Source: Isoetes taiwanensis (lineage: Eukaryota; Streptophyta; Lycopodiopsida; Isoetales; Isoetaceae). Taken from it: DNA of 64,000 nt. Below the pieces are notes generated by a model. The model saw only the letters and a list, made by a program, of their open reading frames with translations, had not been told where the DNA came from and ran no database searches. Each line of letters opens with the position of its first letter. The first letter of the stretch is position 1. Shown here in pieces: positions 564-60,725 of the stretch. A program made the translations under genes and the position numbers. The DNA is taken from NCBI GenBank assembly GCA_021234155.1, contig JAJEKV010000054.1, forward strand, positions 992,001 to 1,056,000. The letters run 5' to 3'.

Positions 564-2172
564 TGTGACGCTCCCAGAATATATACGACCCTCGGACGTA
601 TACATACGGGGACTTTCCCCTCCCATGGCGAACATCTCACCATGAGCAGGGCCCTCCGTCTGTTTCGGGCCACCTATGAAATGAGGCCCGAAAGAAGGAC
701 ACGAAGGGGTCATTCGGCCCACGCCTTCAATGGGACTCCTACGTCGCGGAAGCATGAATACAAGGGTTAGCACACAGCATGAATATACATAAATAACCAC
801 CACAAAGGGTGGCGCATCCATCTAATATACCAACGGCATAGAATATGCATCTAATCCTAGGAAAACACCCAGAACCCAGGTTCTACCCCGGCTCAGACTC
901 CAGTGAGGATCGACTGACGGCTAGGCCTCAAGAGATCGTGCGGACCGAATCTTGGCATGGCGTTGGCGGGCAATAGAACATCGGCTAGGGTTGTCCACTC
1001 CATCCGCCCCTCCACACACACTTTGCGGATGGGTCAATTCATGCTATGGCTTTGCTATAGCCTTAGGAGAGCAGGTTCGGAGGAATCACCCTTTGAGCCT
1101 ACTCCAGGTTCATGGCGCTGGTCCGATGAGGCAGGTCGGGGAAGCGTCCCTTCGGAGAATCCGCAGTGGTTCCACGGGCGAGCTAGAGAATACGTGCGCA
1201 TCAGCGACCCGTATCCGTGCCCGACTTACTGCGCCCTAAATCTACTCAAAGTGCAAGGTGCTCCATACGGATCACACCTTCCCACTCGGGGAGTGTCGGA
1301 CCCATACCCGGCCCTCGTGACCCGGCTATCGGGCCTAGCCCAATCGTAGGAGTCTCGGGGAGCCATGTATGCTCATGCAAGACCCCACCCCTCATGTCAC
1401 CACCGTGTTCCTTGTGCGGTGCTAAGCCGGACCATAGCATCTAGGACCCGGTGGGTTCTTGTGCCTGAGCCGCAAATAATGGGACTCTATTGGGCTATCT
1501 AGGAGCATACTACAATACATGGTTCGAGAGGTCTCTACCCCGTAATCCCCCGTTTGAGTCGATTTAACGAAGAGCTAACAATTCATCCTCTCGGTAGAAA
1601 TCCGAATTGAATATAAAGAGAATTTGTTTGTACAACCAAGGGTTAGATTGAATCCCAAAGAGAAGAGAGAAACGGACACAACCAAGCGTTATCTAGAATT
1701 CACATAGCCACCTACCTGAATTACTGGCTGGACTCATTTCCATGGGGCTTCCATCTCGGGGGAGTTAGGAATTCAATTTCTTTGGCTTTGCACGGGGGCG
1801 ACTAGTATGGTGATTCTCTGCGGTGGATGATGGCGCGGCTCACGGCCTTCCTTGGTCGATTAGAGGAGTCAATCCCAGGGATAGGGGTCAAGTTGGCATC
1901 CAAACTTGGCAACCCCCATGCACCCCAATCGATTGGAGCAGGTGGCGCCTTCCCAAATGGTAATTAGCCCCACTTCCTAAGTTATAGGTTATTACTATTA
2001 CTGTGTTAAATTAGCATAGCTAATTTAATCCATTGTAAGGTAACCCCTTAGGTTGCCATCACGTTCCCATACTCCCATGGTAGCGTACCTTTAGGGGGGG
2101 TGACGTGCTTGTATTTGTACGTGCCTCGTATGAATACGTGACGTAGACCGTATAAATACGTGGAACGTCACA
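564..2172 (-). repeat. 3' LTR of the gypsy element (1609 bp)
   Basis: This is a direct repeat of 10176-11790 with 7-bp inverted ends TGTGACG/CGTCACA. The outer roughly 280 bp at the left and the last roughly 330 bp at the right are almost identical between the two LTRs. The middle part carries many small insertions, deletions and substitutions. Short open frames inside the LTR show no domain and are ignored. Confidence 0.96.
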
Positions 2173-2821: not shown

Positions 2822-3037
2822 TCAGCCTTCAAGCTTACCGCCGGAAGCGGGGTTGATAGCATCATTGATGGTGCGGCCTTGAGATTCCCGCATGAAGTCC
2901 GGATAGTGCTTCTCAAGGTCTATCTTCATCACCCAGGTAGCATCCTCAACTGGTAAGTGCTTCCACTTGACCAAGTATTGCAACATTTGAGTCCTCCTGG
3001 TCTGTTTGTAAGCTCGATCAAGAAGAGCTTCGGGCAC
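2822..3037 (-). pseudogene. Chromodomain of the gypsy integrase, out of frame with it
   Basis: The frame contains the chromodomain signature YLVKWKHLPVEDATW, with the aromatic and acidic positions typical of plant chromoviral integrase C-termini. Such domains bind methylated histone H3 tails and steer integration toward heterochromatin. The segment is in a different frame from the integrase that ends at 3037, so one frameshift separates the integrase from its targeting domain in this copy. The C-terminal extension after the domain is unremarkable. Confidence 0.88.
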
Positions 3038-4056
3038 TATTTCCGTTGCTCTTCCCGCATTTCTAGGAGTGTTGGAGTATCCAAAACCTCCTCTGGATCA
3101 GGGGTGTGTTGCTTCAGAAGACTCACGTGAAAGACCTTGTGGATCTTCAAGCGGGGTGGCAAGTCCAAGCGATATGCCTGTTCTCCCACACGTTCAGTAA
3201 TCCTGAATGGCCCAGCCCATCTGGGTGCCAACTTCTTACAGTTCCCAATTTTAAGCTTGGCTTGTTTTACTTTGATCTTAAGCCAAACCGATTCGCCCAC
3301 CTGGAAGATCCGTGGGGTTCGGTGCTTATCAGCTAGACTTTTCTGACGACTGCGTGCAGCCAATAAGTAACCCCGAACTTCTTCCACCAAGGCCTGCATT
3401 TCTAGAAGGAGTTGTTGAGAGACCTCCACTTTAGAAACAGGATTATGCCATGTGTCTGGAGTAAGACATTGATAGCCATAATTTATCATGAAGGGAGACA
3501 TTCTAGAAGACTCCTGCTTTGTACTGTTGTAGGCGAATTCTACCAAGTAGATATAATCCGCCCATTGTGACTGTTTACTCCATACATAGCTTCTTAGCAT
3601 GTCTTCGATAATACGATTGACACGTTCTGTTTGACCATCTGTCTGAGGATGGTAGGCTGTACTCATGGCAAGCTTGGTCTGAATGGTGGCGAAGAAATCC
3701 TTCCAGAATGCACTGACAAACTTAGGATCCCTATCCGATACAATTACTCTTGGCATCCCGTGCAACCTGAAAATTTCCTTTGCAAAGAGCAAGGCGGTGT
3801 CGAAGGCGGTGTCCGTGGTGCGACATGGCAGGAAGTGAGCCATCTTTGATAATTTGTCGACCACGACCATTAAGGCATCATACCCACGGAGAGTACGTGG
3901 AAGCCCCACAATGAAATCCATGGTTATGACTTCCCACTTGGCGTTGGGCACATCCAAAGGTTGCAACTCCCCAGGAACTCTTAATTGCTCTGCCTTGGTT
4001 TGCTGACAAACCTGACACTGTTTGATGTACCTAGCAATATCCTTCTTCATGGAAGG
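3037..4056 (-). pseudogene. Integrase of the gypsy element
   Basis: The frame opens just after an in-frame TAG and holds the second half of the zinc-binding HHCC module (CQVCQQ) near its start; the two histidines lie before the stop. The DDE catalytic core follows, with the first Asp in TMDFIVGLP, the second Asp in VSDRDPKF and the Glu in HPQTDGQTERVN. A GPY/F-like stretch follows (LAPRWAGPFRI), then LPPRLKIHKVFHVSLLK, typical of chromoviral integrases. The frame ends at 3037 by a frameshift just before the chromodomain. The catalytic residues look intact, but the protein cannot be made as one polyprotein. Confidence 0.93.
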
Positions 4057-5827
4057 CTAAAAATAGCTGGAGCGGATCTTAAAGTAAGTTTTCATAAAAC
4101 CCGCATGTGCTGCTATAGGGCTGTTGTAGGTGTCATGGAGAATCAACTTTCGAGCCCCTGAAGTCACTGGAACACACAACTTATCTTTGTAATATAATAA
4201 GTTGCCCTCCTTCTTATATGAACGGAATGCTTCACGTTCTCTATCGGTACGGGCTTCCCTACCCAAACTTTCCCAAATATTACAGAATTCGGGATCTGTG
4301 GCCAAGGTCTGTTCTATCTGCTTCCCAAACTCGCTGGTGAGTGTGGAAATGGCATTACAATGGGTGCGGATTATAAAGGGATGACGTGACAAAGCATCCG
4401 CAACCACATTGTGCTTTCCTGGCTTGTATACAATCTCGAAGTCATATTCCTCAAGGAATTCCATCCATCTTCGCTGACGGAGATTTAGATTTGGCTGGGT
4501 GGATAGATAGCGGAGACTCTGATGATCCGTATCCAACTGAAATCTTCTACCAAGAAGGTAGTGTCTCCAAATACGGAGCGCACGTACAACTGCCAGCAAC
4601 TCCTGGTCATGGGTAGGGTATCGCTGCTCTGCATCATTCATCTTCTTTGAATCGTAGGCAACAACTCTCCCCTCCTGCATTAACACACCACCGGTAGCTA
4701 TCTTACTCGCATCGGTGGCTACCGATTTATCCTTTTCCGGATCAGGCAAGGTAAGGACTGGTGCCGATGTTAAAGCATCCTTGAGTTTCTGAAAGCCGAC
4801 TTGGACTTTTGTTTTCCAATGCTCCATCCAATCCTTTACTTGCTCATGTCTTGTGAGATTAGTAAGAGGTGCGGCAATTGTTGCAAAATCCTTAACAAAT
4901 TTCCGATAATATCCTGCGAGTCCCAAGAAACTCCGGACCTCTGAAACATTAGCTGGAATGGGCCAATCCTTTACTGCTTCTATCTTAGCTGGGTCTGTAG
5001 CAATTCCTTCTGCTGAGATAATATGCCCCAAGTAGTCCACCCTCGGAGTGGCGAACTTGCATTTAGAGAACTTGGCGAAGAGCTGATGGCGCCTTAGCTT
5101 TTGCAAAGCTAATCGAAGATGTTGTTCATGTTGCTGCAGGGTTTTACTATAGATGAGAATGTCATCAAAGAAAATGACAACAAAGTCATCCAAGTATTGG
5201 CGGAAGATGTCATTCATCAGCCGCATAAACGTTGCAGGGGCGTTGGTCAATCCAAAAGGCATGACAGTGAATTCATAATGCCCATATCGGGTACGAAAAG
5301 CAGACTTATGGATGTCCTCTTCCTTAATCCTTATCTGATGGTACCCAGAGCGCAAATCAATCTTTGAGAAATATTTTGCTCCTTGTAACTGGTCCATAAG
5401 ATCATCTGCCCTAGGCAAAGCATAGCGATTCTTGATGGTATGCTTGTTGAGTTGCCTATAATCAATACACATCCTTAAGGAGCCATCTTTCTTCTTGACA
5501 AAAAGAATAGGAGCGCCAAATGGCGAAACACTAGGCCGAATAAACCCCAAATTCAGTAACTCTTGTAGCTGTTTCTTAAGCTCCGCTAACTCCGGAGGAC
5601 TCATTCGGTACGGGGCCTTGCTGGTAGGCTTCGTTCCTGGTTCAAGAGTTATCTCACATTCTACCCCTCTAAAAGGAGGAAGCTTATGGATCTCATCTGG
5701 AAAAAGATCGCTAAATTCCCGAAGAAGGGTAGCAATATCTAATGGTAAGGCATCGATTTCTTGCTTCCTGATACATGGATTGAGACAAAAAGTAGGTATG
5801 ATACAATGGGAACTTTTAAAGTTCTAC
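4057..5827 (-). pseudogene. Reverse transcriptase and RNase H of the gypsy element
   Basis: The open frame extends upstream of the first ATG (5604) to about 5827 and starts abruptly in the N-terminal part of RT ([14 protein letters not shown]). RT motifs follow in order: [30 protein letters not shown], the [12 protein letters not shown] block and the active site FFDDILIYS. RNase H follows with the [14 protein letters not shown] and LDTDHQSL segments, then the two integrase zinc-finger histidines. At 4057-4059 a TAG replaces the tryptophan codon of the conserved YFWP context and ends the frame. No protease precedes RT. Confidence 0.95.
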
Positions 5828-5877
5828 TGGCACACAGCGTAACCACAACAACGAAAACACAACGGAAAAGACCAAGC

Positions 5878-6366
5878 CTAGGGGTTGGCGAAGGGGTACA
5901 GGATCGCGTAGCGGGTACTCTCCCGTACAGCTCGGACGAGTTTATAGCGTGCCCAGGCTTGGACAATGATTGCTTGGTACTCCCATGTTGGGCTGATAAT
6001 CAGAAGGTTAAAGAGCCTTCGCATCGCATAAAAGAGTTGCCAAAGATGGTCGTTGGCGTCCTCAAAGGCTTCGTGCCTGGTCATATTCCAATAGTCCCAG
6101 GTACGACACAGGGTCATCTTCAGATCCTCGAAAGCTCGATCCCTGAGGATGCTAACTATCTCTAGCCCTTTATCAGGGTCATAGAGTTCCCCTGGTGGCG
6201 GTGGTTCGGTTTCATAGCCTTCCTCCCACTCTGGATATTCATCATATCTCTGGCCATAGTCCTGGTCTGGCGGCCCGGGATCGTCCCTCCTAACCATGTC
6301 GGTAATTCTTTCCTCATATTCCCAAATGGTTTCCTCTGCAACATAGTTGGAGTGAATAGAGAACAT
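5878..6366 (-). CDS. Unassigned element ORF, 162 aa
   Basis: This is an open frame with its own ATG inside the gypsy element, just upstream of pol. The N-terminal half is rich in Glu, Asp, Tyr and Pro. The C-terminal half is Trp/Arg/Leu-rich and probably helical. There is no zinc knuckle, no DTG/DSG protease motif and no similarity that I recognise. It is one of the ORFs occupying the space where gag and protease are expected. It may be a captured host sequence, a diverged gag piece or a chance frame. Confidence 0.4.
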   Translation of the reverse strand: MFSIHSNYVAEETIWEYEERITDMVRRDDPGPPDQDYGQRYDEYPEWEEGYETEPPPPGELYDPDKGLEIVSILRDRAFEDLKMTLCRTWDYWNMTRHEAFEDANDHLWQLFYAMRRLFNLLIISPTWEYQAIIVQAWARYKLVRAVRESTRYAILYPFANP

Positions 6367-6579
6367 TTTGTAATTCCACTATACCCTAAACTTTAATGCT
6401 TTGGAAGAGGATGTCATAAAAAAACAATTTAGTTATGCTCATCAAGAAAACTTTGTATTTAATAAGTAGATAAGGTACACATTTTTTCAATATGGTTTAA
6501 ACAATTGCCAATCCCAAAATCTCATAACTACATGTGGGTATATATATGTATATAACAAAATTTATATAGCATCTTTAGT

Positions 6580-6950
6580 TCAGGAACTAGGCCCTGCCTC
6601 TTTATCCTTAGCCCTAGGAGGTGGTGGAGGCGGTCGGTGTCGCAGCAGAGCTACCCCAGGGTCCACGGTGGCCGCCGCAACAGATGCAACCTCTGGTGGA
6701 TAAGCAACGGCCAATGGGGCTGCCGTGAGGAGCTTCATGCCCATCCAAGGCGCAATATCCTGGCCCAAGGCCGTAAGGGCAAGATCCCGTCGTACGAGTA
6801 CATACGTAAACGTACGATAGGGAAGCTTCTTGTGGCCGGCGAGTGTAGAAAGTGCACCTGGGCCCACCATGAAGCTTTCAGACCTCGCCCCAAGTCCCGG
6901 GCTATGAAGAGAACTTGCCCGTGTTTGAAGGCCGACAAAAAGAAATCGGT
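6580..6950 (-). CDS. Unassigned element ORF with proline-rich C-terminus
   Basis: A frame with an ATG at 6870 runs to 6580. The same frame extends upstream to about 6950 without a stop. It ends in a run of prolines and a short charged tail. A second open frame overlaps it on the same strand (6735-7097), so the true reading is unsure. I recognise no domain. Confidence 0.3.
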
Positions 6951-6975
6951 AAGGTGGTTACCCAAAGACCTTCCC

Positions 6976-7981
6976 TTATGGAATTTCAGATGCGGCCACC
7001 TCCTTATCCAAGTCCATGGGGACTTCTTCCTCCTTGAGCTCCTGTTGCTCCTCCTTCTTGTGTGCAGGGTTATGATATAAATCTTCGCCCTCATCATCTA
7101 AGTCGGAGGGAACCTCAACCATATTAATGTTTGGGACGGGAGGTCCCATAGCCGTGAAGGCTTCGTGCGGTCGTGGAAGGCGTTCCCCGCATCACAAAGT
7201 CCCCAAGGCGTAATAAAGTCTCCGCCGGCTCTAGGGTCTCCTGACGGAACTGAAGCAGCTGGTACACCTCCGAAGGAAGCTCAGTAGAAGTGAAGTCGAT
7301 AAAATCATCCATGCAATACTCCGCAAGCTCGTAAAGTACATGGTCCTTGCGCTTGGCGTCTAATCCGCCACCATATGATAAGTCCAGATGATATCATCCA
7401 AGAGGAGGTACTCCTGCCCTTGGTGATAAATAACGGGGAGGCCGTCTAACCCTGACAAGCCTATAGCTTGTTCACGGCGCGGTGGTAACTCCTCTGCCAG
7501 CTCTTTCCAACCGGCGAAGTCGCCCATCCCTATATGCTCATCATCCCCCTCCTCGGAGGATTCCGGCAGTTTGCTCCTCTCTCCTGGCAAAGTCTCATCC
7601 TCAACATATTGGTCCATGAGGATAGCCGTATGCGAAAAGTAGCTTCCAAATACTTTGCTGCCCCCGATGTTGACTACCGGTAGGTGTTTTCCCCATCGGA
7701 GTTTCCCCTTGAGGACGCCAGACGCATCGTGTCCCCACCTAACATCTCACGGACGATCTCCGCTCCAAACATACCGGGGGGAGGATCCCCAAGAGGAATA
7801 CATAGAGGAAGGATTTCCTCCATGTAGAAATCAAGAAATCCGGCGTAGTCCGGGTGCCGCTGCATGTTGGTAAGGAGATCTATCTTGCCGCATAGCAAAG
7901 GTTGCAGCAGATCGAAGGGAACCTCGTGGATCCCATGTCTCTCCGATCATGGTACCAAAGGCAAGGTCGGGCGGCAGCCAT
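6976..7981 (-). pseudogene. Acidic ORF of the gypsy element, frameshifted
   Basis: Open segments at 7674-7960, 7360-7680, 7124-7340 and 6976-7190 follow one another in different frames and read sensibly as one protein of about 330 aa. It has two strongly acidic stretches, one containing PESSEEGDDEHIG and a C-terminal one containing SDLDDEGEDLYHNP and KKEEQQELKEEE. An ATG in a good context lies at 7979-7981. An AT-rich TTTAAAAGGGG stretch lies about 55 bases upstream of that ATG. I recognise no family; acidic tails of this kind occur in histone chaperones, but that is only a thought. Frameshifts near 7680, 7350 and 7190 suggest decay or sequence errors. Confidence 0.4.
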
Positions 7982-8035
7982 GGCGCTAGAAGGGAGGAGA
8001 GAGGAAAAGAAGCGTTTAAAATAACCCTACAGTCC

Positions 8036-8046
8036 CCTTTTAAACC
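8036..8046 (-). promoter_or_regulatory. TATA-like stretch upstream of the acidic ORF
   Basis: The minus strand reads TTTAAAAGGGG about 55 bases before the ATG at 7981. A pyrimidine-rich leader lies between them. The spacing is plausible for a core promoter, but nothing in the sequence proves use. Confidence 0.25.
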
Positions 8047-8185
8047 CTCTTAATAAAGCTGATGTCAGCATTATATTTTAAATTTAACATGGAAAAAAAA
8101 ACATTAAACTTTTAATTCAAAATAAAAGCTTCTTTATTAATTATCACAAAAAGAATATGTACAAATGCGGATCCCCGCAAGTAGG

Positions 8186-9493
8186 CTAAGGTTGCTCCCC
8201 CCGTATCCTACGGGCGAGGGCTAAATCCTTAGGCATTATGGTGACCCTCTTTGCGTGGATAGCGCAAAGGTTGGCGTCACCAAAAAGTGCTACCAAGTAG
8301 GCTTCAGCAGCCTCTTGGAGCGCCAAAATGGCAAAGGTCTGGAAACGGAGATCGGTCTTAAATTGCTGTGCGATCTCCCGTACCAGCCTCTGGAAAGGCA
8401 GCTTCCTGATCAGAAGGTCCGTGGACTTCTGAAATTTGCGGATCTCCCGCAATGCCACGGTACCGGGTCGGAACCGATGAGGCTTCCGCTGCGGCCGAGG
8501 CTGTACAGGTGGCCCCGACGGTGTGGGCACAGTCTTCGCCCCAGCAACTGGTCGGGCGTTGTCAACCCGCTGCTGCCTCCGGTCGGAGCTGGTCTTCTTA
8601 CCAAAAGCCCCGACAGTCCTTAGCTTTTCCTTGTAATGACTGCCGGACTTATGGGCGACACCCTTCCTCCGGTGCTTCACGGTCTGGTGCGTCGGTTTTG
8701 GGTCCGGCCCACTCCCAGACGCACCTCCCTCTTGCTGGTCCCGCTGGTCTTGCCGGTCCCGCTCATCTTGCTCAATCTTCTCCCGCTCCTCCCGAGCTCT
8801 CCTCAGATCTTCTTGGATCTGAGCAAAAAGTTGGGCTGCGGCACGGCGATTAAGTTCGGCGTGGTACCGTTGTGGCCGCAGACCCATGTCTATCTGGATA
8901 GTCACCAGATAGTCTAGGCTAATGTCGGGGATTTCCCCCCATTCAAAACTGTTGGAACCCTCATGCCAGTGGTATGAGGGAACCTCGATGGCCCTGCCAT
9001 CAATGACGGCAAAGCCGTCCCCGAGGTACCGGTACTCCCTCCCCCGGGCTGCCGTGTCGGCCCGCTCAATCTCCCGGTGGTCATCCTCTCTGGCCAAACC
9101 CCTGATACGGTCGGCCTCTGCCCTGACATCTTCCTCCTCCGTATGGCCTTCCTGCTCAGGAGGATAAAACTTGATGAGCATCATTACCATGTCTGGTTGC
9201 TCAACAATGGTATATGGGAGCTGGCGTAGGTTCAGCCGGATAAGAAACGGCTCTGAGAAATGATAGATAGGATAAGGAATCCTATCATTGTTCTCAAACC
9301 TGTTGACCAGCTCATCCAACAAGATGTCGACGAGGGCTGGGTCAGTGGCCATGTGCTTAGCAATCATGGCGTAGATCTCCACGATGCTCAAGGTGGTTGG
9401 ATCTGGAGCGCTCTTGGTGATAGCCATAGGGAAGGGTGAGAGGCGCCGGGCGCTAAGAAGATGGCAAAAGGGGCTAAGAGGCACAAGGCACAA
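8186..9493 (-). CDS. Retrotransposon protein ending in a histone H3 fold
   Basis: This is an intact 435-codon frame. A likelier start is the ATG at 9427 (MAITKSAPD), giving about 413 aa. The C-terminal 99 residues (DNA 8189-8485) are an almost complete histone H3: [16 protein letters not shown], the alpha-1 helix with [20 protein letters not shown], the alpha-2 helix with [27 protein letters not shown] and the ending ARRIRGE. It lacks the longer loop 1 of CENH3, so it is a canonical-type H3. It differs from plant H3 at several positions, for example Gln where H3 has Asp77 and Phe at position 87; Leu90 matches H3.3. The normal H3 tail with ARKS is absent. In its place lies a basic linker after a coiled-coil-like region rich in Glu, Arg and Gln and an N-terminal half I do not recognise. 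It sits in the gag position. A host H3 must have been captured by the element. Confidence 0.9.
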
Positions 9494-10161: not shown

Positions 10162-10174
10162 GGCTCTGATACCA
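10162..10174 (-). other. Primer-binding site, initiator tRNA-Met
   Basis: On the minus strand the bases read TGGTATCAGAGCC. This is complementary to the 3' end of plant initiator methionine tRNA, the commonest primer of plant LTR retrotransposons. One base separates it from the LTR. Confidence 0.93.
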
Positions 10175-10175
10175 C

Positions 10176-11790
10176 TGTGACGCTCCCAGAATATATACGA
10201 CCCTCGGACGTATACATACGGGGACTTTCCCCTCCCATGGCGAACATCTCACCATGAGCAGGGCCCTCCGTCTGTTTCGGGCCACCTATGAAATGAGGCC
10301 CGAAAGAAGGACACGAAGGGGTCATTCGGCCCACGCCTTCAATGGGACTCCTACGTCGCGGAAGCATGAATACAAGGGTTAGCACACAGCATGAATATAC
10401 ATAAATAACCACCACGAAGGGTGGCGCATCCATCTAATATACCAACGGCATAGAATATGCATCTAATCCTAGGAAAACACCCGAACCCGTGTTCTACCCC
10501 CTCGCTGACTCCAAAGTGAGGATCGACCACGGCTAGGCCTCAAGAGATCAGCAGACCGAATCTTGGCATGGCGTTGGCGGGCAATAGAACATCGGCTAGG
10601 GTTGTCCACTCCATCCGCCCCTCCTGTGCACACTTTGCAGATGGGTCAATTCATGCTATGGCTTTGCTATAGCCTTCCGGAGACGCAGGTTCAGAGGAAT
10701 CACCCTTTGAGCCTACTCCAGGTTCATGACGCCTGGTCCGATGAGGCAGGTCGGGGAAGCGTCCCCTTCCAGAATCACAGTGGTTCCACGGGCGAGCTAG
10801 AGAATACGTGCCGCATCAGCGACCCCCGTATCCGTACCCGACTTACTCGCCCTAAATCTACTCAAAGTGCAAGGTGCTCCATACGGATCACACCTTCCCA
10901 CCCAGGGAGTGTCAGACCCATACCCGGCCCTCTACGTGACCGGCTATCAGGCCTAGCCCACTGTAGGAGTCTCAGGAGCCATGTATGCTCATGCAAGACC
11001 CCACCCCTCATGTCACCACTGTGTTCCTTGTCTGGTGCTAAGCCAGACCATAGCATCTAGGACCCGGTGGGTTCTTGTGCACAGGCCGCAACTAATGGGA
11101 CTCTATTGGGCGCTATCTAGGAGCATACTACAGTACATGGTTCAGAGGTCTCTACCCCGTAATCCCCCGCTTCGCAGAGTCGATTTAACGAAGAGCTAAC
11201 AATTCATCCTCTCAGAGTAGAAATCCGAATTGAATATAAAGAGAATTTGTTTGTACAACCAAGGGTTAGATTGAATCCCAAAGAGAAGAGAGAAACGGAC
11301 ACAACCAAGCGTTATCTAGAATTCACATAGCCACCTACCCTTAATTTGACTCATTTCCATGGGGGCGCTTCCATCTCCGGGGAGTTAGTTAGGAATTCAG
11401 CCGCCACGCACAGGGACGACTAGTATGGTGATTCTCTCAGGTGGATGATGGCGCCACTCCCCGCCTTCCTTGGTCGATTAGAGGAGTCAATCCCAGGGAT
11501 AGGGGTCAAGTTGGCATCCAAACTTGGCAACCCCCATGCACCCCAATCGATTGGAGCAGGTGGCGCCTTCCCAAATGGTAATTAGCCCCACTTCCTAAGT
11601 TATAGGTTATTACTATTACTGTGTTAAATTAGCATAGCTAATTTAATCCATTGTAAGGTAACCCCTTAGGTTGCCATCACGTTCCCATACTCCCATGGTA
11701 GCGTACCTTTAGGGGGGGTGACGTGCTTGTATTTGTACGTGCCTCGTATGAATACGTGACGTAGACCGTATAAATACGTGGAACGTCACA
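10176..11790 (-). repeat. 5' LTR of the gypsy element (1615 bp)
   Basis: This is the direct repeat partner of 564-2172 and the promoter-bearing LTR, given the minus orientation. The primer-binding site lies just inside it at 10162-10174. I did not pin down the transcription start. Confidence 0.96.
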
Positions 11791-11795
11791 CTTGG
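11791..11795. repeat. Target-site duplication, right copy
   Basis: CTTGG immediately follows the terminal CA of the LTR and is identical to 559-563. Confidence 0.93.
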
Positions 11796-30762: not shown

Positions 30763-31911
30763 TCATAATCTTGAAGATACATACCAAGTTTTATAAACTG
30801 GTAGATTCAAAAGCTCGTGAAAAGAATCGCAGCTGATATCATGCTGTGCCCTTAGGTAGTCAAAAGCTGAGCAATGGAGAAGAGCATGTCGTTCATCTTC
30901 TACTTGAGCGTCTAGGCAGCAAGGACAAAAACGCAATTCACGTGGCATATCCTGCTCTCGTCCCACCTCAATTGCCAGTCTATGTGAACTTAGGCGCATG
31001 CAAGAGAGAAGCTTCCGCTTTCCTCTACTAAGCTTACCATTTAAATAATCCTGCTCGCCATAGACTATCATTGCATTTACTTCTTCCCTGTAAAAGTTTC
31101 TTTTTGTCCCAAGATCTCCAACTGGCCACAATTTCAACAGAGATTTATTGGTCACTAAATCTCGAATCCCTATACTAGATGAAGGTAGATCATCCAGTCC
31201 AATGCTCCAATAGCCTGCCCACTCTTCTAAATACTTATACCATCCCACATGGGATTGGATCATAGATTCTTGCAAGGCTTGTCTCGACAATCTGTGGTCT
31301 TCTAATTTTTGTATTCTACCAAAATACTCTAGTGTTTGACAAAGGGCTTCCACTTCAAGCGGATACATACCTGTTTCTGCAAGCAGCATCTCATATGGGG
31401 TCTGAGTTTTAACTCCCAATTCTTCAAGCAAGAAACGCTTTTGAACCTTCCACTTTGATCGTGCAAGACCAGGACCCCAGACCATGCACCCATATAGTAC
31501 CACTGTTTGAACCAATGTCCGAAACATTAATTTACGGAGATGCCAACTCCAGATATGGTTATGTCTGCAATAGCTGAGCATATGATATAGTGCCCTTAGC
31601 CCCCCCGATATTCTCTTCCGGACTCCGCTATTCCATTTATAGTTATTTGTCAACTCTATGCCCAAATACTTGTATGATTTGACCTGTTCCAAAATCTCTC
31701 CATCAAATTCCATATCTGCTTTTTGGCGAGAACCCATCACCATCACCTTCGTTTTCCCTTTATTCACATTCATACCAGCATAGACACAAAATTTCTCAAG
31801 TCCTTGAAGAAGTTTTTGCAAACCCTGTGGTGTTTGAGAAACAAGTACCACATCATCATCAACATGAATATAATTGCATATCAGCATTATATTCATTGTG
31901 CAATTTACCAA
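30763..31911 (-). pseudogene. 5'-truncated LINE ORF2 (RT C-terminal half)
   Basis: A long frame (382 aa) starts inside the reverse transcriptase at the catalytic box (YIHVDDDVVLVSQ, the YADD motif with Ala changed to Val). It continues through the thumb region with NVNKGKTKVMVMG, VKSYKYLGIELTNN and VLYGCMVWGPG. It ends with a zinc-finger-like stretch CPCCLDAQVEDERHALLHC followed by a short tail. This is the usual C-terminal architecture of plant non-LTR retrotransposons. The endonuclease and the first RT motifs are absent, consistent with 5' truncation during target-primed insertion. The remaining frame is free of stops, so the insertion may be fairly young. No clear poly-A tail is seen at the left end. 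Confidence 0.88.
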
Positions 31912-38474: not shown

Positions 38475-41400
38475 TTAAGATGAACAATGTGCTATGTCTT
38501 TCCACATGTCTATAATATATTTCGAATTTGGATTTGCTTCTACCTCTTGCCATTGGCATCCTGCATAATGAATAGCATCTAAATTTTCATACCTTGAAGG
38601 ATCGGAAGGATTAGGCCGCCAACGCTTAGTCAAGCAGTCTTTTGTAGTCCCCTCCAAAGAGGCTTCCACCACGATACAAAAATATGGCCAAAATATGTAG
38701 ATTCCGGATCAAGAACAAAAGATTCTCCTCTGCATATCCTAACCAAGTGGCGTTGTTATCATCTCCTGTGTCCGACTAGAACAAACATACCCTTTGTCAC
38801 ATGTGCGTGAGGATCAAACTCTTCAAGAGGCAACACCGGATGACCATCCGACGGGCCACAATAAGATGGTAAAGGTCGTGTGACCAAGGCAGATATCGTC
38901 GACCTCTCGAACAAATGTTTGTTTGTTCTAGAGGAGCTTGTCTTGTTTGTGGCCAAAATGCATCATTTTGAGGACGTCCCAAGCAACATCCTCCAAAGAG
39001 ATAAGAAGTCGGCTCCAATACTCAACACTTGCCGTGTATTGCCTTGCAAACAAGCTACTTTCTTGATTCTTACATATGTCCTTCCATAGGGAGATGTATT
39101 TGTTGATGCTATCCTTCAACCCCGAAGATCTTTCAATGTTGGTCTAGGAGGAATATTTTGTGGCACACCACTTGGTATCATTGGCTGACCATGTTCATCC
39201 TCTTTCCACATTCTAACTCCCGGAGAATCTGCTTTGGAAGCCACTCTTTATGTGTAGGACGCATTTTGTATTGCATAACGTGGCCAATCTCCCCGCCATC
39301 TTAAATTTGAAGAGCAATGGTTCAAGATGCCCAACCAGGCGTTGGCCCTTATCGGGATGAATCCCTTCACAAAATCCTTCCAATTTGGAACTTCATCAAT
39401 AAAGTATGGAATTGGGGATTTTGCATTGCATTTGCTAAACAAGTAAAGTAGCTCGTAGTGTCAAAGCATCCAACCTAACTCATCAAGGTTGAAAAATTTC
39501 CAAATAAAGCATCAATATCATCATGGGTGTGGCCGACCATCATAAAGCCCACTTGGATCTCATCAAAGACCTTAAGCCAAGTCAAATAAGATAAGTATGA
39601 AAAGACATACCTATTTTTGTTTTGCCTTCACGCATTATCAAGTTGCAAATAGAGATTTCGGGAAGAGGGTTGAACACCTCAGATTCGTTGTAGTTGAAGT
39701 ATTTGGCAATACTTCTCCCATGGAAGCAAGTTTGTTCTTCAAAGGATTGATGTCCTTGACCGCTTGCATCCATTTGCAATCTGCAGGCTTACTTCCACAT
39801 AAGTCACCTATCTTGTCCTCTTGCACCAATTCCAAGTTATGCAATATTCTAGAAAGTGAACCAATGTGGAAGTTTGAATCATCTTTCCATAAATCAAGTG
39901 AAAAATGACCATAGGCACGACCACCATGCCCATGAGTCAAAGCTCCCATCAAAACCGCTCTTCAAGCGATCACCTCTCCATACGATTTTGCTAGATGATG
40001 ACTTCTAGGCACTAAAGTCTTAACCTGATCCATCTTATCATGTATTATACATAGATGATTTTCAGGAGACCGCTGTGACAATGCTCTCCAATGCCAATAT
40101 TGACTTCTGCAAGAGCGTTGCTCTAGCATATGAGCCCGACGTTGAATTGCAAGATTTCGTCTCTCTCTTGTATCTTTTGTTTTTTCCAGCTTTTGCTTAA
40201 TTACCACGCAGATGTTGCATTTAGAGAAGGCTGTATTTTTTGCAATGCTAACATCTGGAAATTCCCTTTTCCATATACTATAAAAAGAGTTCAAGGCTAC
40301 AGTTGTTCCTGTAAGCTCTTCAACGACTGCTCCAACTTCTTTATGTATAAGCTTCTTATTAAGAATGGAAGGAAGCTTCCGTACATTTTCTCTTACATCA
40401 TCTCTACCTCTTTTTGCTCCTATGGGGAATACTTTCAAAGATTCTCCCGAATGAATCTGTCTAGCACACATTAAGTGGCCCGGTGTAGTGGATCCGGGCT
40501 TCTTAGAGCCAAGATACCCATGTTCACTACCTTTGCACCTGCTTCAAATCTGTTTCTCAATTGTAAAATGTTGATCGACCGATACCTAAAGCCATGCGCC
40601 ACCCAAAATGACAATTCCATCCCCTTGAGCACTATCCTGTCCTCTCCTTCTCACATAAGTCACACTCAAAGACGTCAAAAAAAATACGTAACCCTTTGCA
40701 TTGTATGGTTGAGATAAAAATTCTTTTCTTAATTCACATACTTGATGCTTGGTAAGTTTCTTGTTGCAAGTATTTTTGCAGCAGCTTGTCTTCATGAACT
40801 TATTGATTGAAGTTGTGGAGCATAGCCTTTCCTCTTTGCTCTTTCCCTTGGGTTGTCTTGGAATCCTATGTGTGTAAGTATACTTCCTTTTTCGTTTGAA
40901 TTGAGCCTGAATGTTGTCCTCAAAAGATTCTATTTCCATATCCTCATTTTCTTTAGCTTCTCGAGCTTGCAGATGTTGTGAGACAGTCCTTCCATCCTGC
41001 AGCATCACATCGCTATTTTCCCATTGTACAAGGTAATTTTCTGCTGGCCTTTCTGCACAAGCATGACATTTGAGATCCTCTGTAATTAGTGCAGGAAGGA
41101 TCTTTCCCACACAGAGCCCCACCTTTGAGTCTCCTAAAAATTCATCGTCAACAGCATCCTGGGGATCACTGAAGACAATTATGGCCTCTGCATATTTACT
41201 TCGGTCACATGCATGAAGAATGTGGCAATGCTTATCCAAGAGATCGGTTCTTGAGAAACTAGGTGGTGGTTCATCATCATCTGATGCTATCCTCGCGAGG
41301 AAAACGCGTGTACCTAGATCCAATTGTAGGATCAATTTCTTCATCGCATCGACATTGCCTCTACGCATTCTACAATCGAGGTCGGTGATGGAGTAAGCTA

Positions 41401-41632
41401 AATCAATGGCATGATATCTTATATCTTGCCGAGGCCATTCGATAAACGTGCCCACAGCCTCTTCAATGTTGTCAGCGCCATCACATGGAATCGGAAGGAT
41501 GTGGGTAGGCACCACAGCCTCGGTAACTTGCACTCCTACGTTGAGTGCGTCAACATTCTTCCCATGGATGCAAGTTCTATTCACCAAGACACCCTTACCA
41601 ACCACAGTATTATTACTGACAAGGTTCACCAT
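38475..41632 (-). pseudogene. Transposase-like gene with DUF7869-type core, broken
   Basis: Minus-strand frames at 40586-41632, 39962-40471, 39582-39952, 39480-39560, 39248-39442 and further left follow in family order but in different frames. The first (348 aa) begins with a module like the Tnp1/En-Spm domain (VTEAVVPTHILPIPCDGADN, then TFIEWPRQDIR) and ends in a Cys-rich stretch (CCKNTCNKKLT). The second has FYSIWKREFPDV followed by a KCNIC zinc-ribbon-like piece and HLCIIHDKMDQVKT. The third has GALTHGHGGRAYGHF. Near 39505-39545 lies VGHTHDDIDALFGNFS, the best-conserved motif of DUF7869 transposase-like proteins. Frameshifts and stops show that it is dead. No terminal inverted repeats were identified. 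Confidence 0.68.
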
Positions 41633-48932: not shown

Positions 48933-49343
48933 TGTTAAACAATGTATAAGAAACAACTTGAATCAATATTTCAGTGCAATAGATTGGCAACTAACTCAAT
49001 TATCATACATAAGCTATATAAACAGCTTAAATACTTAGAATTTAGTCAATACAAGTAACAATGCTATTGACCAATATTTCAAGGCATTGATCACTTAGGA
49101 ATAACCATTCCCCTGCATATTAGTTTCACTAGGATCAGCATCACAAAAGCATGCAATTTTGTTTTATTTATAGATCCGATCCTAACCACTTGCAGTCGGT
49201 TCTGGATCAGTCCATTTCGGTCGCCTGTGCTATAGGATAACTATTCGATTCTATTCGACCCCTTAATTTAGCTATAAATATCATATTCTCCTTCTTTATA
49301 ATTAACCATGAATCATATGGTTTATCTTAAACCATTGTATTCA
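48933..49343 (-). repeat. 3' LTR of the copia element
   Basis: Starts TGTTAAACAATG on the plus strand and ends near TTGTATTCA. Direct repeat of 53803-54205. Confidence 0.92.
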
Positions 49344-49500
49344 CCTTCTAACCATTGATATGCTCAACTTTGTCTCCATATATCTTCCCATTGATCTTGC
49401 ATCTTCCTTTAACCATGTTAACCTTACCCTTATATCTAACATTAATACTTCTAACATTCCCCTTCATGTTAGATATTCTATTTCAGATAATTCAACATGT

Positions 49501-51070
49501 TCAGTCATCTGTGTTAAACTGTATCTTTCTGCACCTTGTTCCCTTTACTGTATTTCCTGTATGATCATGATCTTCCCGTGAACATACTGTTATAGCTGGA
49601 CTTACACCAATATCTTCCTGCAACTTTATGAATCTGTGTACTGGGACCACTTTAGTCAACATTTCTGCAATTTGTTCTGTGGTATTTATGTACTCAACTG
49701 TAATAATTCCTTTTGCAACCATATCCCTTACAAAATGAAGATGAAGCTCAATGTGCTTTGTTCTTTTATGAAAGACTGGGTTTTTAGTTATGGCTATACA
49801 ATTTATACTAACAATAAAAAGTGTAGTAGGCTTTATTTGTGCTGAGCCTAATTATGTCAATCATCTTCTTACCCAGACCACCTCCCTAGCTGCTAATGAA
49901 GCTGCATTGTATTCTGCCTCTGCTGTTGACATAGCTATACAACCCTGTTTTTTGCTTCTCCATGATATTGTGCTACCACCAACTTGTAAAATGTAACCTG
50001 AGGTTGATACTCTAGTGTCCATGTCTCCTCCCCAATCTGCATCAGAATATGCAGTTAGCTCAAGGCTATTATTTGAAAATGTTAAACCTTTATTATTAGT
50101 TCCCTTCAAAAATCTGAGCACATACTTTGCTGCACGCCAATATTGCTTTCCTGGGTTATTCCCAAATCTACTCAACATATTCACACAAAAGGCTATATCT
50201 GGTCTGCTACAATTTGCCACATACAGGAGGCATCCTGCTAGTTCCCTATATGGATAATCCTCCATCTCCAATATTTCCTTTTCACTTGTAGGACGTAAAT
50301 CCAATGACACTTTCTGACCTGTGACCATAGGAGATCTTACATTATTGCATTCAACCATTTCAAATTTCTGCAACATCCCTTGAATATTGCTGTTTTGAGT
50401 TAAGGTAATCCTTTTATGCTCTCGATCCCTGTGTACTTCAATCCCAAGGAATCTTTTAAGAGGTTCCAAATCTGTCATCTTGAATCTGTTGCTCAGTAGA
50501 TTTTTGCACTGATTTAAGCATTGTAAATTATCACTTACCATAATATTATCATCCACATATAATGCAATGATACAAAAATGATTTTTCTCCCTATAAGCAT
50601 ACAGATTACCATCATTCTCCAGTTTTGTTGAATCCTTGCTCTCTCAAAAAACCATCCATGCACAAGTACCATTGCCTTGGAGACTGTTTGAGACCATAAA
50701 CATCTTTCTTTAGCCTCCGTACTGTATTTTTCCCTTGCTCAAATCCTTGAGCTTGCTGCATATAAATTTCTTCATGTAGAGCAGCATTCAAAAATGTTGT
50801 GTTGACATCCATATGGTAAAGTTCAAGATCTAGTGCATTAGCAAAAGCAAGAAGAACTCTCAAGCTTGTTAGTTTAACAATAGGAAAAAAAGTCTCATCA
50901 TAATCAATACTTTTTCTTTGAGAGAAACTTTGTGCAACCAGACGCGCCTTGAATTTTTGTTCCCCATCATTACCAACCTTCAGTTTGTATAGCCATTTGT
51001 TTATTAGAATATTTCTATTTTTAGGCTTCTCCACCAATATCTCATCTCTTCTTCCAATGCACTTTTCCAT
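49501..51070 (-). pseudogene. Copia reverse transcriptase and RNase H
   Basis: Frame 50612-51070 carries NKWLYKLKVGNDGE, ARLVAQSFSQRKSIDYDETF, ELYHMDVNTTFLNAALHEEI and KDVYGLKQSPRQWY. A short disrupted part removes the link to frame 49861-50556. That frame starts inside the catalytic YVDDN box and includes LLYVANCSRPDIAFCVNMLS and the RNase H blocks YSDADWGGD and AMSTAEAEYNAA. The end (49501-49760) has HKRTKHIELHLHFVRDMV and EMLTK. Confidence 0.93.
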
Positions 51071-51123
51071 TGGTCTGTATTTTCTGAATTTAGTGCTTCC
51101 TCATAAAACTATTCTATTCTATT

Positions 51124-52760
51124 CTATTCCTCATAATTTCTAGGCACACTAAGCTCCAGAATTGCCATTATATCATTAATCTCAATGTTGAAATTTTGCA
51201 ACCTTTTTGATGTACCAGCAGGCGTTCTTCCATGTTTTTCACGATCTATGTCATTGAATCCTTCTCTCAATCTCTCAACCTCAGTACTTTTCTTCCTTAT
51301 GGTCATTTCTTCTGTTTTATTTTCCACATGTTTATCAGCTTCTTTTTCTTTGTTTTCTTCATAGTGGTCTGATTGTGTTGTCTCCTCATCTTGATTGTTG
51401 TGATCTTCAACTGCAAGTTTATCATCATCTTCTACATATGAATTTACTTGTGCATCCTTTACCTCTGCTTTCTTGTGTTCAATATTGCCAAACAGGTCTT
51501 GTCTACCATCAATTTCTTTTCTATTCTTGTAGAGTATAGTTTCATTAAACTTCACATCTCTGCTAACAATGATTCTTCTTTCCTCTGGAACATAAATCCT
51601 GTAGCCCTTTGACATTTCATCATACCCTACTAGAAATCCTTTTATTGCTCTATTGTCAATTTTTTTCTTACTTCCTTAGGTACATGTGAGAAAGCCATAC
51701 AACCAAATGCCTTCAAATATTCATACCTTGTATTTGTCCTGCTCCACAAGTTTTCAGCTACCTGACCATTTAGGCTAGAAGAAGGTATTCTATTTTGAAT
51801 ATGAACAGCTGCTCGTACTGCTTCTTCCCATAAGAAATTAGGTAGACCAGATTGCTTTAACATAGATCTCGCACAGTGAAGAATTTACCTATTTTTCCTC
51901 TCAGCCACTCCATTTTGTTGAGATGTATGGCTACATGTAATTTGCCTTTTGATCTCCTTTTCTCTGCAGTATTTTTTGAATGTATCATTAACAAACTCTC
52001 CACCACGGTCTGACTTAAGCATTTTACCATTCTGCCTGTCATTCTTTCTGCTTCTGCTTCAAAAATCCTGTAAGCTTTGTAAGCTTGACTTTTTCCACTA
52101 AGGAAAAAATACTTAGTATGCCTAGAATGATCATCAATAAAGGTAATAAAATATTTTTTTTCTTGTAGACTTCTCACATTAATAGGTCCACAGAGGTCAG
52201 AATGTACCAGTTCTAGCAAGTCTCCAGCTCGTTCATGTCTTTTTTGAAAAGGCAATCTTGTGCTTTTTCCCACCATGCATCCATAGCAGACAAAGTCATT
52301 ACTTTCAGCAGCAGCCTTTCCTAATCATTTCCTTTAGATTTTCTATATTAGCATGTCCTAATCTCTCATGCCAAAGCTTTAATGTTGGAATCTCTACTGA
52401 ATTTATACTTCCAGACAAGGTTTTGTTATGAAACCCAAATAGATTCCCAACGCGTTTTGCAAGGAACTTAATTTTATTGTTCTCAAATACTTTACAACAG
52501 TATTTGTCAAGCATAAGTTTGAATCCCACGTCTACCAGTTGACTGACAAAGATTAAGTTCCTTACAATGTTTGGAACTAACTGTACATTATGCAGATTAA
52601 CAACATTGCCTTCCAAATCAAATAGCTCAAGCATTCCGGATTCTTTAACTTCTTGCAGCTCACTATCACCCATTTGCACAAATGTAGAAGTCCTTTTCTT
52701 CCCTTCCTTGAGAGCATCAGTAGATTTAACAACTGATCTCTCAGCTCCACTATCTATCAA
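51124..52760 (-). pseudogene. Copia protease and integrase
   Basis: Frame 52305-52760 begins at the protease active site (MIDSGAERSVV) and runs to the gag-pre-integrase motif LKLWHERLGHANIENLKEMI. Frame 51857-52276 follows with the integrase core (LVHSDLCGPINVRSL, ITFIDDHSRHTKYFFL), but its last third is shifted. Frame 51642-51863 gives LPNFLWEEAVRAAVHIQNR. Frame 51124-51615 is the hydrophilic linker with FNETILYKNR. At least three frame changes are present. Confidence 0.9.
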
Positions 52761-52849
52761 AAGTATGTCGCTGTTTTTGTTAGCAATTTCATTTAAAATA
52801 GAGCATGTAGCAGATCTACATACCTCAGCTTCAGAATCTTCTTCCTCAT

Positions 52850-53786
52850 TTAAAAAACCTCTTGTACCAGATTTACACTGCTAGCACCTTCATTTCTTCT
52901 CATGTTGCTGTTCCTTTTACCATAACCAGAATCCCATTTATCCTTATTCTTATTTCCAATCCCCTTAGGACTTGGACATGCAGCAGCTAAATGCCCAAGA
53001 CCCTCACAATTAAAGCATTTATTTTCTTTTAGCTTGGGACAATTGTTTTTCAAGTGACCATATGAGTTACATCCAAAACATGGTCCTAATTTCCTTTTTC
53101 CATTTCCCACTCGTCCTTTCTTTTTCCCTGCAAACAAGATCTCAGAGTTTTCTTCTTCTCCTTTTAACATTTTCTGTTGTTCAATTTATGTTCTTATCAT
53201 AAGCTCAGCTTTTTCTCTATTTCTAGCTACTGTTCTTACCAAGGTGGACAATTGTTCAAACTCAGAAAATGCCCTTGATAAGGAGAGTACATGAAAATCT
53301 TTGGTAATGGAAACTCCAGCAATCTCAAGATCTGTAACAATGTTATCATATCTTTGAAAGAAAACAGTTAGATTATCTTCTTTCTTGAACTTTAGTTCTT
53401 AAATCTCTGTCAAGTAATTCAATTTGAGATGAATTTTCCACCTGGTAATTCTTGATCAAAAAAGCCCATATCTCCTTGGGTGTTTTATTTTTTATTTTAA
53501 ACATGATACTGGAACTTCGCTTACTAGCAATGATACATCTTGCCTGATGTGCTCTTTTCGTGTGGCTCCCACTTGCAACAACATTTATTGATGGCTCACT
53601 TGCACCACTGTCTCTTGAATTTGCTGTACTGCTCTCACCTTCTTCAATATTTTCTCCAATAACCAGATCCCACAGATCTTCAGCCAGCAGCACATCCTTC
53701 ATCCTTTCCTTCCATGCTTGAAGTCTAGCTTTCCCTTGAAATATCTCAACTCCATTGAGCAAAGAGGAATCAAGTCTAGTTGCCAT
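52850..53786 (-). pseudogene. Copia gag with two zinc knuckles
   Basis: Frame 53373-53786 starts MATRLDSSLLNGVEIFQG and has the LxxWKxRMxDxL-type start of copia gag, with DLWDLVIGE. After a disrupted middle, frame 52850-53170 holds two CCHC knuckles, CFGCNSYGHLKNNC and CFNCEGLGHLAAAC. These bind the genomic RNA. A frameshift near 53400 and a stop near 53185 break it. Confidence 0.9.
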
Positions 53787-53789
53787 TTA

Positions 53790-53801
53790 GCTCTGATACC
53801 A
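53790..53801 (-). other. Copia primer-binding site (initiator tRNA-Met)
   Basis: The minus strand reads TGGTATCAGAGC next to the 5' LTR. The gag ATG (53784-53786) lies only a few bases further in. Confidence 0.93.
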
Positions 53802-53802
53802 A

Positions 53803-60722: not shown

Positions 60723-60725
60723 TTA

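What the first reader, a model, noticed from the sequence alone, without database searches (positions are those of the whole stretch)
8186..9493. A histone H3 fold captured inside a Ty3/gypsy retrotransposon
Seen: an intact ORF in the gag position of a full-length chromovirus ends in 99 residues that align end to end with histone H3 from KPHRFRPG to RIRGE, including all three fold helices, K56, K79, C110, K115 and K122 equivalents. Known: chromoviruses normally carry gag there, and their integrase chromodomain reads H3 tail methylation. Inferred: the element took up a host H3 and fused it to a coiled-coil-bearing N-terminal part. The tail with K4, K9 and K27 is replaced by an unrelated basic linker, so a nucleosome containing it would lack the usual silencing marks. 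It could let the element package its DNA, enter chromatin or evade silencing. The ORF is open while pol is broken.
Basis: partly seen in the sequence, partly recalled or inferred. Interest (0 to 1): 0.94.

Follow-up and report, generated by a model that had tools for sequence, protein, structure and literature searches.

The report
Histone H3 carried by a retrotransposon
An abundant jumping gene in what is almost certainly the quillwort Isoetes taiwanensis carries its own version of the chromatin protein histone H3, fused to an unknown domain and conserved by natural selection, which suggests that a genomic parasite has turned part of its host's chromatin machinery to its own use.

Summary
ORF1 (9427-8186) ends in a complete histone H3 core, 85 of 99 residues as in host H3, inside a full-length chromovirus. 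The genome is almost certainly Isoetes taiwanensis.

It is no gag replacement: related copies read LTR-ORF1(H3)-ORF2-ORF3-gag-protease-pol-LTR; the window copy has lost gag and protease.

It is no one-off: 3,302 H3-motif sites (host genes included) and 1,033 LTR/primer junctions, controls 0. Element H3s form a clade apart from host H3. In open copies the H3 part has median pairwise dN/dS 0.04, against 0.07 for RT and 0.18 for the rest of ORF1; copies chosen without regard to H3 agree.

Many DNA-, H4- and tetramer-contact residues stay; ARKS tail motifs are mostly lost. Best guess: an element-encoded H3 variant that enters chromatin or the chaperone pathway to counter silencing; this mechanism is inferred and untested. 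Precedents: fungal hAT transposons with captured H3.

The parts
10176..11790 (-). 5' LTR (TG...CA)
   Evidence: Direct repeat with 564-2172, 93.5% over 1636 aligned columns; K2P 0.051; flanked by TSD CTTGG at 11791-11795
564..2172 (-). 3' LTR (TG...CA)
   Evidence: flanked by TSD CTTGG at 559-563
10162..10174 (-). Primer binding site TGGTATCAGAGCC, complementary to plant initiator tRNA-Met (name recalled)
   Evidence: Sequence directly after the 5' LTR; 1,033 LTR/PBS junctions of this type in the genome with up to 2 mismatches, control 0
8186..9427 (-). ORF1, 413 aa: orphan N-terminal part + basic linker + histone H3 core; open
   Evidence: of the 101 best genome copies scored (this one included) 67 have no in-frame stop
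8186..8485 (-). Histone H3 core (KPHR...RIRG, H3 residues 37-135) and stop codon
   Evidence: 85 of 99 identical to host H3; Pfam 5.5e-41; PDB H3 4.6e-51
8486..9427 (-). N-terminal part and basic linker of ORF1, no known relative
   Evidence: No hit at E <= 0.001 in the 5.8-billion protein database; no convincing PDB profile match (best E 0.22) or Pfam match (best E 0.061)
6577..7981 (-). ORF2, broken in this copy by frame changes; about 462 aa in open copies; orphan
   Evidence: Pieces align to ORF2 of other copies at 30-65%; open frames in L017, L020, L031, L033; no PDB match, Pfam best E 0.12
5878..6366 (-). ORF3, about 165 aa, open; coding homology begins at a splice-acceptor-like CAG; orphan
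   Evidence: no convincing PDB or Pfam match (best E 0.16 and 0.047)
4057..5823 (-). pol: reverse transcriptase and RNase H (start of integrase zinc finger); frame ends at a stop
   Evidence: Pfam RVT_1 8.6e-39, RT_RNaseH 7.5e-34
3037..4056 (-). pol: integrase core
   Evidence: Pfam rve 7e-8, SH3_Tf2-1 1e-21
2822..3097 (-). Integrase chromodomain, in another frame here
   Evidence: Pfam Chromo 4.9e-9

Best explanation
An old chromovirus family of the quillwort lineage took up a host histone H3, probably once, and kept it as the C-terminal part of an extra protein, ORF1, encoded with two further orphan proteins (ORF2, ORF3) between the 5' LTR and an ordinary gag-pol. SHOWN by sequence: gene order, the many copies, a separate element H3 clade, strong purifying selection on the H3 core in open copies, and retention of many residues that in H3 contact DNA and H4 and form the H3-H3' interface (roles recalled). 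INFERRED: the three upstream ORFs are made from spliced messages; ORF1 pairs with host H4 and is handled by host histone chaperones, so it enters nuclei and chromatin as an H3 variant whose N-terminal domain projects where the H3 tail would be. LEAST CERTAIN: because the K9/K27 region is altered while a lysine at the K4 position stays, chromatin containing it resists H3K9/H3K27-based silencing, and the element gains expression (an anti-silencing factor).
For: Gene order in 20 copies of about 10 kb: H3-ORF1 (in some copies interrupted) after a related LTR in 20 of 20 (these were chosen by H3 score), gag or protease in 18 of 20. Copy number: 3,302 H3-motif sites, host genes included, and 1,033 LTR/PBS junctions, controls 0. 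On contigs C1-C412, 12 of 22 exact junctions have an exact H3 motif within 3.3 kb downstream (my comparison of the lists). Selection: H3 median dN/dS 0.04 (209 of 406 pairs usable), ORF1 N-terminal part 0.18 (183 of 406); RT 0.067 (36 pairs examined), ORF3 0.115 (171 pairs examined). Of 20 copies picked by ORF3, 14 have an H3 hit in place and 6 an open core, pooled pN/pS 0.022. A tree separates 41 element H3s from 8 host H3s, support 94. In 40 element cores 55 of 99 positions are invariant and host-like, including 56, 69, 72, 79, 83, 110, 113, 116, 123 and 126; positions 86, 87, 105, 107 and 135 never carry the host residue. 8 of 13 ORF3 frames have no ATG before the conserved part, and that part begins at tt(G/A)CAG in the 11 copies listed. 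K5 is invariant in 13 of 13 ORF1 N-termini. Element-encoded anti-silencing proteins exist in plants: VANC (PMC5735166, PMC10398659; starts of abstracts in the listing).
Against: Nothing shows that ORF1 enters nucleosomes; a ~310-aa N-terminal extension might prevent it. 4 of 5 group-B copies keep an ARKS motif in the linker, so loss of K9/K27-type motifs is not complete, and the linker is no more like the H3 tail than its own shuffles (p 0.08-0.84 in 10 copies). Many copies are dead: among 40 sites from the motif list only 11 element cores are fully open. dN/dS was computed on open copies only, and the first sample was chosen by H3 score. The 11 open cores of the motif list give a median of 0.027 (28 of 55 pairs usable) but a pooled pN/pS of 0.117, with saturating pS 0.651. 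The RT, ORF3 and H3 values come from different sets of copies.
Confidence: 0.45

Rival explanations
1. Import and tethering. The H3 core is an address label: bound to H4 and histone chaperones, ORF1 carries the element's cDNA/integrase complex into the nucleus and onto chromatin, complementing the integrase chromodomain. No lasting change of chromatin is needed.
For: H4- and DNA-contact positions kept (roles recalled); the element also has an integrase chromodomain; a separate ORF1 could act with gag-pol.
Against: No evidence of contact with Gag or integrase; other chromoviruses do without an H3 (recalled).
Confidence: 0.27
2. Chaperone or histone decoy. ORF1 soaks up H4 or H3-specific chaperones and so weakens replication-coupled chromatin assembly and silencing across the genome.
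For: All 40 element H3 cores differ from the host at 86 and 87, next to residues that in plants separate H3.1 from H3.3 handling (recalled), and at 105 and 107.
Against: A decoy need not conserve DNA-contact residues as strictly as seen.
Confidence: 0.12
3. Genome packaging. The H3 core wraps element cDNA, or serves as a nucleic-acid-binding part of the particle, as proposed for histones of giant viruses.
For: DNA-contact residues kept; some giant viruses encode histones that form nucleosome-like particles (PMC11500106, PMC9145170; starts of abstracts in the listing).
Against: The element has its own gag with a weak CCHC-knuckle match. No H4, H2A or H2B partner was detectable in ORF2 or ORF3; that test is weak, because the ORF1 profile with its H3 part scored only 0.2% against H4.
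Confidence: 0.1
4. Passenger capture without function, as in Pack-type transduplication.
For: Transposable elements often pick up gene pieces; a fungal hAT element amplified H3 copies that were then inactivated (PMC6710886, abstract).
Against: H3 has the lowest median dN/dS of the parts compared; it is kept across element lineages with saturated synonymous divergence; same position in 20 of 20 copies.
Confidence: 0.03
5. Gag replacement: the H3 fusion is this element's Gag.
For: In the window copy no gag or protease is found.
Against: 17 of 20 long copies have gag by tblastn and 18 of 20 gag or protease, L026 being the query; Ty3_capsid 1.2e-16, Retrotrans_gag 6.8e-16 and RVP_2 1.2e-13 in L026.
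Confidence: 0.01

Closest known systems
Histone H3-carrying hAT transposons of fungi (Pyrenophora tritici-repentis H3L, PMC3538342; Pseudocercospora fijiensis and relatives, PMC6710886)
   Same: A transposable element captured a host H3 and multiplied it: 26 H3L genes in P. tritici-repentis (10 long and 16 short elements) and 784 H3-like copies in P. fijiensis (abstracts and passages seen).
   Different: Those are DNA transposons of ascomycetes. H3L in P. tritici-repentis is a separate gene with insertions in its tail; the P. fijiensis copies are inactivated by RIP. Here it is an LTR retrotransposon of a lycophyte, H3 is fused to a ~310-aa orphan part, there are ~3,300 motif sites (host genes included), and the core is under purifying selection.
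Chromoviruses (chromodomain Ty3/gypsy elements) of plants
   Same: LTRs, primer site, gag-CCHC-PR-RT-RH-IN-chromodomain.
   Different: Three extra ORFs in front of gag, the first carrying histone H3.
Gypsy elements of Phalaenopsis orchids with an AlkB-type m6A demethylase ORF (PMC9289625)
   Same: LTR retrotransposon with an extra ORF holding a captured host domain that may act against host control (abstract and passages seen).
   Different: The captured domain is an RNA demethylase. That screen covered 121 angiosperm genomes, not lycophytes; the main text has no PF00125 and names histones twice, in other contexts.
VANC anti-silencing proteins of VANDAL elements in Arabidopsis (PMC5735166, PMC10398659)
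   Same: Element-encoded protein that counteracts silencing (proposed likeness of function only).
   Different: Sequence-specific proteins (starts of abstracts in the listing) of MULE-type DNA transposons without a histone fold (recalled).
Histones of giant DNA viruses (Marseillevirus, Medusavirus)
   Same: Selfish element encoding histones (starts of abstracts in the listing).
   Different: Several core histones or doublets in dsDNA viruses (listing); only H3 is detectable here.

Membership tests
Ty3/gypsy chromovirus | Paired LTRs with TG...CA ends, TSD and tRNA primer site | tested here: met
Ty3/gypsy chromovirus | Order RT-RNaseH-integrase with C-terminal chromodomain | tested here: met
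Ty3/gypsy chromovirus | gag with capsid and CCHC knuckle, aspartic protease | tested here: met
   Met in relatives: capsid and protease above Pfam cut-offs in L026, knuckle below cut-off (E 0.007) but visible as a CCHC motif in L012; gag or PR in 18 of 20 long copies. Not found in the window copy
Histone H3 (core fold) | Full alphaN-alpha1-alpha2-alpha3 core alignable without gaps | tested here: met
   99 residues ungapped, 85 identical to host H3
Histone H3 (core fold) | Canonical tail residues 1-36 with K4, K9, K14, K27, K36 | tested here: not met
   Linker not more H3-tail-like than its shuffles, p 0.08-0.84 in 10 copies; N-terminus MARTKGT in group C, K5 invariant in 13 of 13
Histone H3 (core fold) | Pairs with H4 and enters nucleosomes | not testable with these tools
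   Structure prediction and fold search switched off
CENH3 (centromeric H3) | Divergent core with longer loop 1 (recalled) | tested here: not met
   Loop 1 FKTDLRF is of normal length in all 14 copies aligned and identical in 13 of 14
Transposable element with captured histone H3 (fungal hAT type) | H3 inside the element's termini, amplified with it | tested here: met
Transposable element with captured histone H3 (fungal hAT type) | hAT DNA transposon with terminal inverted repeats | tested here: not met
   LTR retrotransposon; works like it in capture and amplification, not a member
TE-encoded anti-silencing factor (VANC-like) | Expression lowers methylation or silencing of the element | not testable with these tools
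   Needs an experiment

The most novel reading that the evidence does not exclude
A retrotransposon that writes its own chromatin: ORF1 is a mobile-element histone variant, an H3 core with a lysine-4-like N-terminus and a large effector domain in place of the K9/K27 tail. It is installed in host nucleosomes, perhaps with ORF2 and ORF3 as partners or chaperones, so that chromatin at the element or across the genome cannot be marked for silencing.
Probability: 0.3. Interest if true: 0.96.

Novelty: new variant of a known kind. Interest (0 to 1): 0.83.

Why it matters
H3 is among the most constrained proteins known, and its tail is where host silencing of transposons is written (recalled). An LTR retrotransposon that has kept its own H3 core under purifying selection across lineages with saturated synonymous divergence, while changing the tail, makes it testable whether selfish DNA can fight silencing by supplying the histone itself rather than an enzyme or DNA-binding protein. 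It also offers many natural H3 variants in one host, and orphan conserved proteins to study beside them.

Tried and rejected
That ORF2 and ORF3 encode H4-, H2A- or H2B-like folds (a full core-histone set): suggested by eye, not supported by Pfam or PDB searches, shuffled alignments or hhalign (at most 0.1%). The hhalign test is weak, because the ORF1 profile with its H3 part, a true fold relative of H4, also scored only 0.2% against H4; so not shown rather than excluded.

That the linker before the H3 core is a degenerate H3 tail (AR-HPATGGK, ARKSG): shuffles give p 0.08-0.84 in 10 copies; dropped. The N-terminal MARTKGT of group C is kept as a lead only: 6 of 7 matches to MARTKQT, against at most 4 of 7 in 104 unrelated N-termini (2 of 104 reach 4). 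Among 7,216 ATG-started 7-mers in 29 element sequences 3 score 6, 9 score 5 and 50 score 4; I take the three to be the group-C starts themselves, and the 4 of 7 of the other lineages is not unusual.

That ORF1N and ORF2 are related: hhalign 0.3%. That ORF1N or ORF3 relatives exist in IMG/VR: none by tblastn. Protein-database relatives of the ORF1 N-terminal part: none, but that query was the window's divergent subtype, so relatives of the majority subtype could have been missed. A search with the H3 end found 5,291 proteins, of which only the best 120 were listed; those are host-type H3 fusions or tandem H3s by name and domains, none named a retroelement. The pol search listed relatives at 42-64% identity among its best 120, the named ones plants and the alga Closterium, others unnamed.

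A mis-registered script (one search reported 0 of 40 open cores because the frame offset was one codon off) was replaced (12 of 40, one of them host).

Full report
WHAT IS THERE. The reported frame is on the minus strand, 9493->8186, with its first ATG at 9427, 413 aa. Its C-terminus is histone H3: Pfam PF00125 5.5e-41, PDB H3 chains 4.6e-51. The 99-residue core is 85/99 identical to the H3 of the same genome; the 14 differences are Y41F, Y54F, E59D, E77Q, S86T, S87F, V89I, G102A, E105G, T107A, I124L, Q125A, R134Q, A135P. The element around it has LTRs at 564-2172 and 10176-11790 (K2P 0.051 over 1,589 sites), a 5-bp duplication CTTGG on both sides, and TGGTATCAGAGCC, the initiator-tRNA primer site (name recalled), directly after the 5' LTR. 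RT, RNase H, integrase and chromodomain follow. Pol is broken in the window copy and so is ORF2.

WHICH GENOME. The window lies in a 1,658,258,908-base assembly of 1,110 contigs. The Isoetes taiwanensis paper gives 1658.30 Mb in 204 scaffolds plus 909 contigs, 1,113 pieces (PMC8566536, passages seen). The host is therefore almost certainly that quillwort; this is an inference from size, not a name given by a tool.

NOT GAG. Twenty copies of about 10 kb were fetched from a PF00125 search, so they were chosen by H3. In 20 of 20 the H3-ORF1, in some copies interrupted, follows a related LTR. In relatives the order is LTR - ORF1 - ORF2 (~462 aa) - ORF3 (~165 aa) - gag - CCHC - protease - pol, with deletions in single copies (L012 lacks ORF2 and ORF3). 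Pfam finds Ty3_capsid 1.2e-16, Retrotrans_gag 6.8e-16 and RVP_2 1.2e-13 in L026; the zinc knuckle stays below its cut-off, E 0.007. By tblastn 17 of 20 long copies have gag and 18 of 20 gag or protease, L026 being the query; in the window element the best E is 1.3. ORF1 is thus an extra gene in front of gag, and the window copy is a derivative that lost gag and protease.

HOW COMMON. The ORF1 search had 12,392 first-look candidates, 101 scored, 67 of 101 without an in-frame stop. ORF3 had 3,020 candidates, 150 scored. A degenerate pattern for the H3 stretch [10 protein letters not shown] occurs 1,664+1,638 times with up to 2 mismatches, control 0. Host H3 genes are among them: 15 rows of the 150 cover the whole profile from position 2, nine of which I read and found to be host H3; of the first 42 motif sites listed, 2 are host H3 (L004, L067), and a few decayed ones cannot be assigned. 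The LTR/primer junction occurs 524+509 times, control 0. On contigs C1-C412, 12 of 22 exact junctions have an exact H3 motif within 3.3 kb downstream (my comparison of the lists). Many copies are dead: of 40 sites from the motif list (two of the first 42 left out because already held), 12 have a fully open core, 11 of them elements and one host.

SELECTION. In 29 ORF1 copies (406 pairs) the median pairwise dN/dS of the H3 part is 0.04 (209 usable pairs) and of the N-terminal part 0.18 (183); synonymous sites are often saturated between lineages, so the association is old. RT gives 0.067 (9 copies, 36 pairs examined) and ORF3 0.115 (171 pairs examined, many saturated). The first sample was chosen by H3 score and could be biased, so 20 copies were chosen by ORF3 rank: 14 of 20 have an H3 hit where expected, some of them decayed, 6 of 20 a fully open core, pooled pN/pS 0.022 over 15 pairs. 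The 11 open element cores from the motif list give a median of 0.027 (28 of 55 pairs usable) and a pooled pN/pS of 0.117 at saturating pS 0.651; the pooled value is the least favourable one obtained for H3. All these values use open copies only. In 40 element cores (27 distinct) 55 of 99 positions are invariant and equal to the host; positions 86, 87, 105, 107 and 135 never carry the host residue. A tree of 41 element and 8 host H3 genes groups the elements with support 94, which fits a single capture.

TAIL. hhalign extends the match into the linker, but shuffles do not support linker-tail homology (p 0.08-0.84 in 10 copies). The N-terminus of one lineage (L029, L030, L034) is MARTKGT, 6 of 7 with MARTKQT; other lineages score 3-4 of 7, with one value of 1 where an extra Met shifts the register. 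Lysine 5 is invariant in 13 of 13. Four of five group-B linkers contain ARKS (L031, L033, L035, L036); the window copy has AHKS. So the statement that the tail is replaced by an unrelated linker is mostly right for residues 7-36 and open for residues 1-6.

EXPRESSION LOGIC. ORF1, ORF2 and ORF3 lie before gag, so the downstream frames need their own messages. 8 of 13 ORF3 frames have no ATG before the conserved part. That part begins at tt(G/A)CAG in 11 of 11 copies listed; the motif that picked them (A/T followed by D/E) fixes part of this site, so the count is partly circular. By eye, pyrimidine-rich AG sites also precede many ORF1 and ORF2 start codons. Splicing is inferred; no transcript was available.

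PARTNERS. ORF1N, ORF2 and ORF3 have no convincing relative in Pfam or PDB by profile and ORF1N none in the protein database. I looked for H4, H2A and H2B folds in ORF2 and ORF3 and found no support; the test is insensitive. The single-sequence model of ORF3 is helical but poor (pLDDT 51.5).

MECHANISM. The strictness of selection on the core, including DNA- and H4-contact positions (roles recalled), means that the protein most likely still behaves as an H3: it pairs with H4, binds chaperones and DNA. The large N-terminal domain takes the place of the tail. The most economical benefit to a plant retroelement is protection from H3K9/H3K27-based silencing; import or tethering of the integration complex is the main rival. 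I give 0.45 to the histone-variant/anti-silencing reading as stated, 0.27 to tethering, 0.12 to a decoy, 0.10 to packaging.

NOVELTY. H3 capture by transposons is known from fungal hAT elements (PMC3538342, passages; PMC6710886, abstract and passages), and extra captured ORFs in Gypsy elements from orchids (PMC9289625, abstract and passages). A retrotransposon-encoded, fused, selectively maintained H3 did not appear in the listings of ten searches of open-access papers (some of these asked other questions). The main texts of the two Isoetes genome papers do not contain the word histone. Subscription papers and most preprints were not searchable, so this is no proof of absence. Hence 'new variant of a known kind'.

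Noticed in passing
window 48933-54203: A broken Ty1/copia element on the minus strand with 408-bp terminal repeats 94.4% alike; RVT_2 and Pol_BBD pieces.
   Followed up: partly
window 60282-64000: A stretch of about 2.07 kb repeats 97.7% alike with an offset of about 1.67 kb up to the window's end, so probably a long-unit tandem array; the ORF at 62440-63090 has no Pfam match at E <= 0.01.
   Followed up: no
window 30763-31911: Remnant of a reverse transcriptase (RVT_1 4e-7), non-LTR type by appearance.
   Followed up: no
window 39962-41632: Two neighbouring long orphan ORFs without Pfam match.
   Followed up: no
window 2822-9427 compared with L009-L027: Mosaic history: the window RT is almost as close to group A copies (83.8% nt, 10 comparisons) as these are to each other (87.4%, 45), but its ORF1 is far more distant (46.3% aa, 9, against 72.8%, 36). 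Suggests exchange of the ORF1-2 block between element lineages.
   Followed up: partly
LTRs, window 564-2172 and 10176-11790: By eye, many LTR differences look like C-to-T or G-to-A changes at CG on either strand (49 transitions, 29 transversions), as expected of a methylated, silenced copy. CG context was not counted.
   Followed up: no
Host H3 loci L001-L008: The H3 of this genome has E at position 77 and L at 90, while the 120 listed database H3 proteins all have D77 wherever the motif matches.
   Followed up: no
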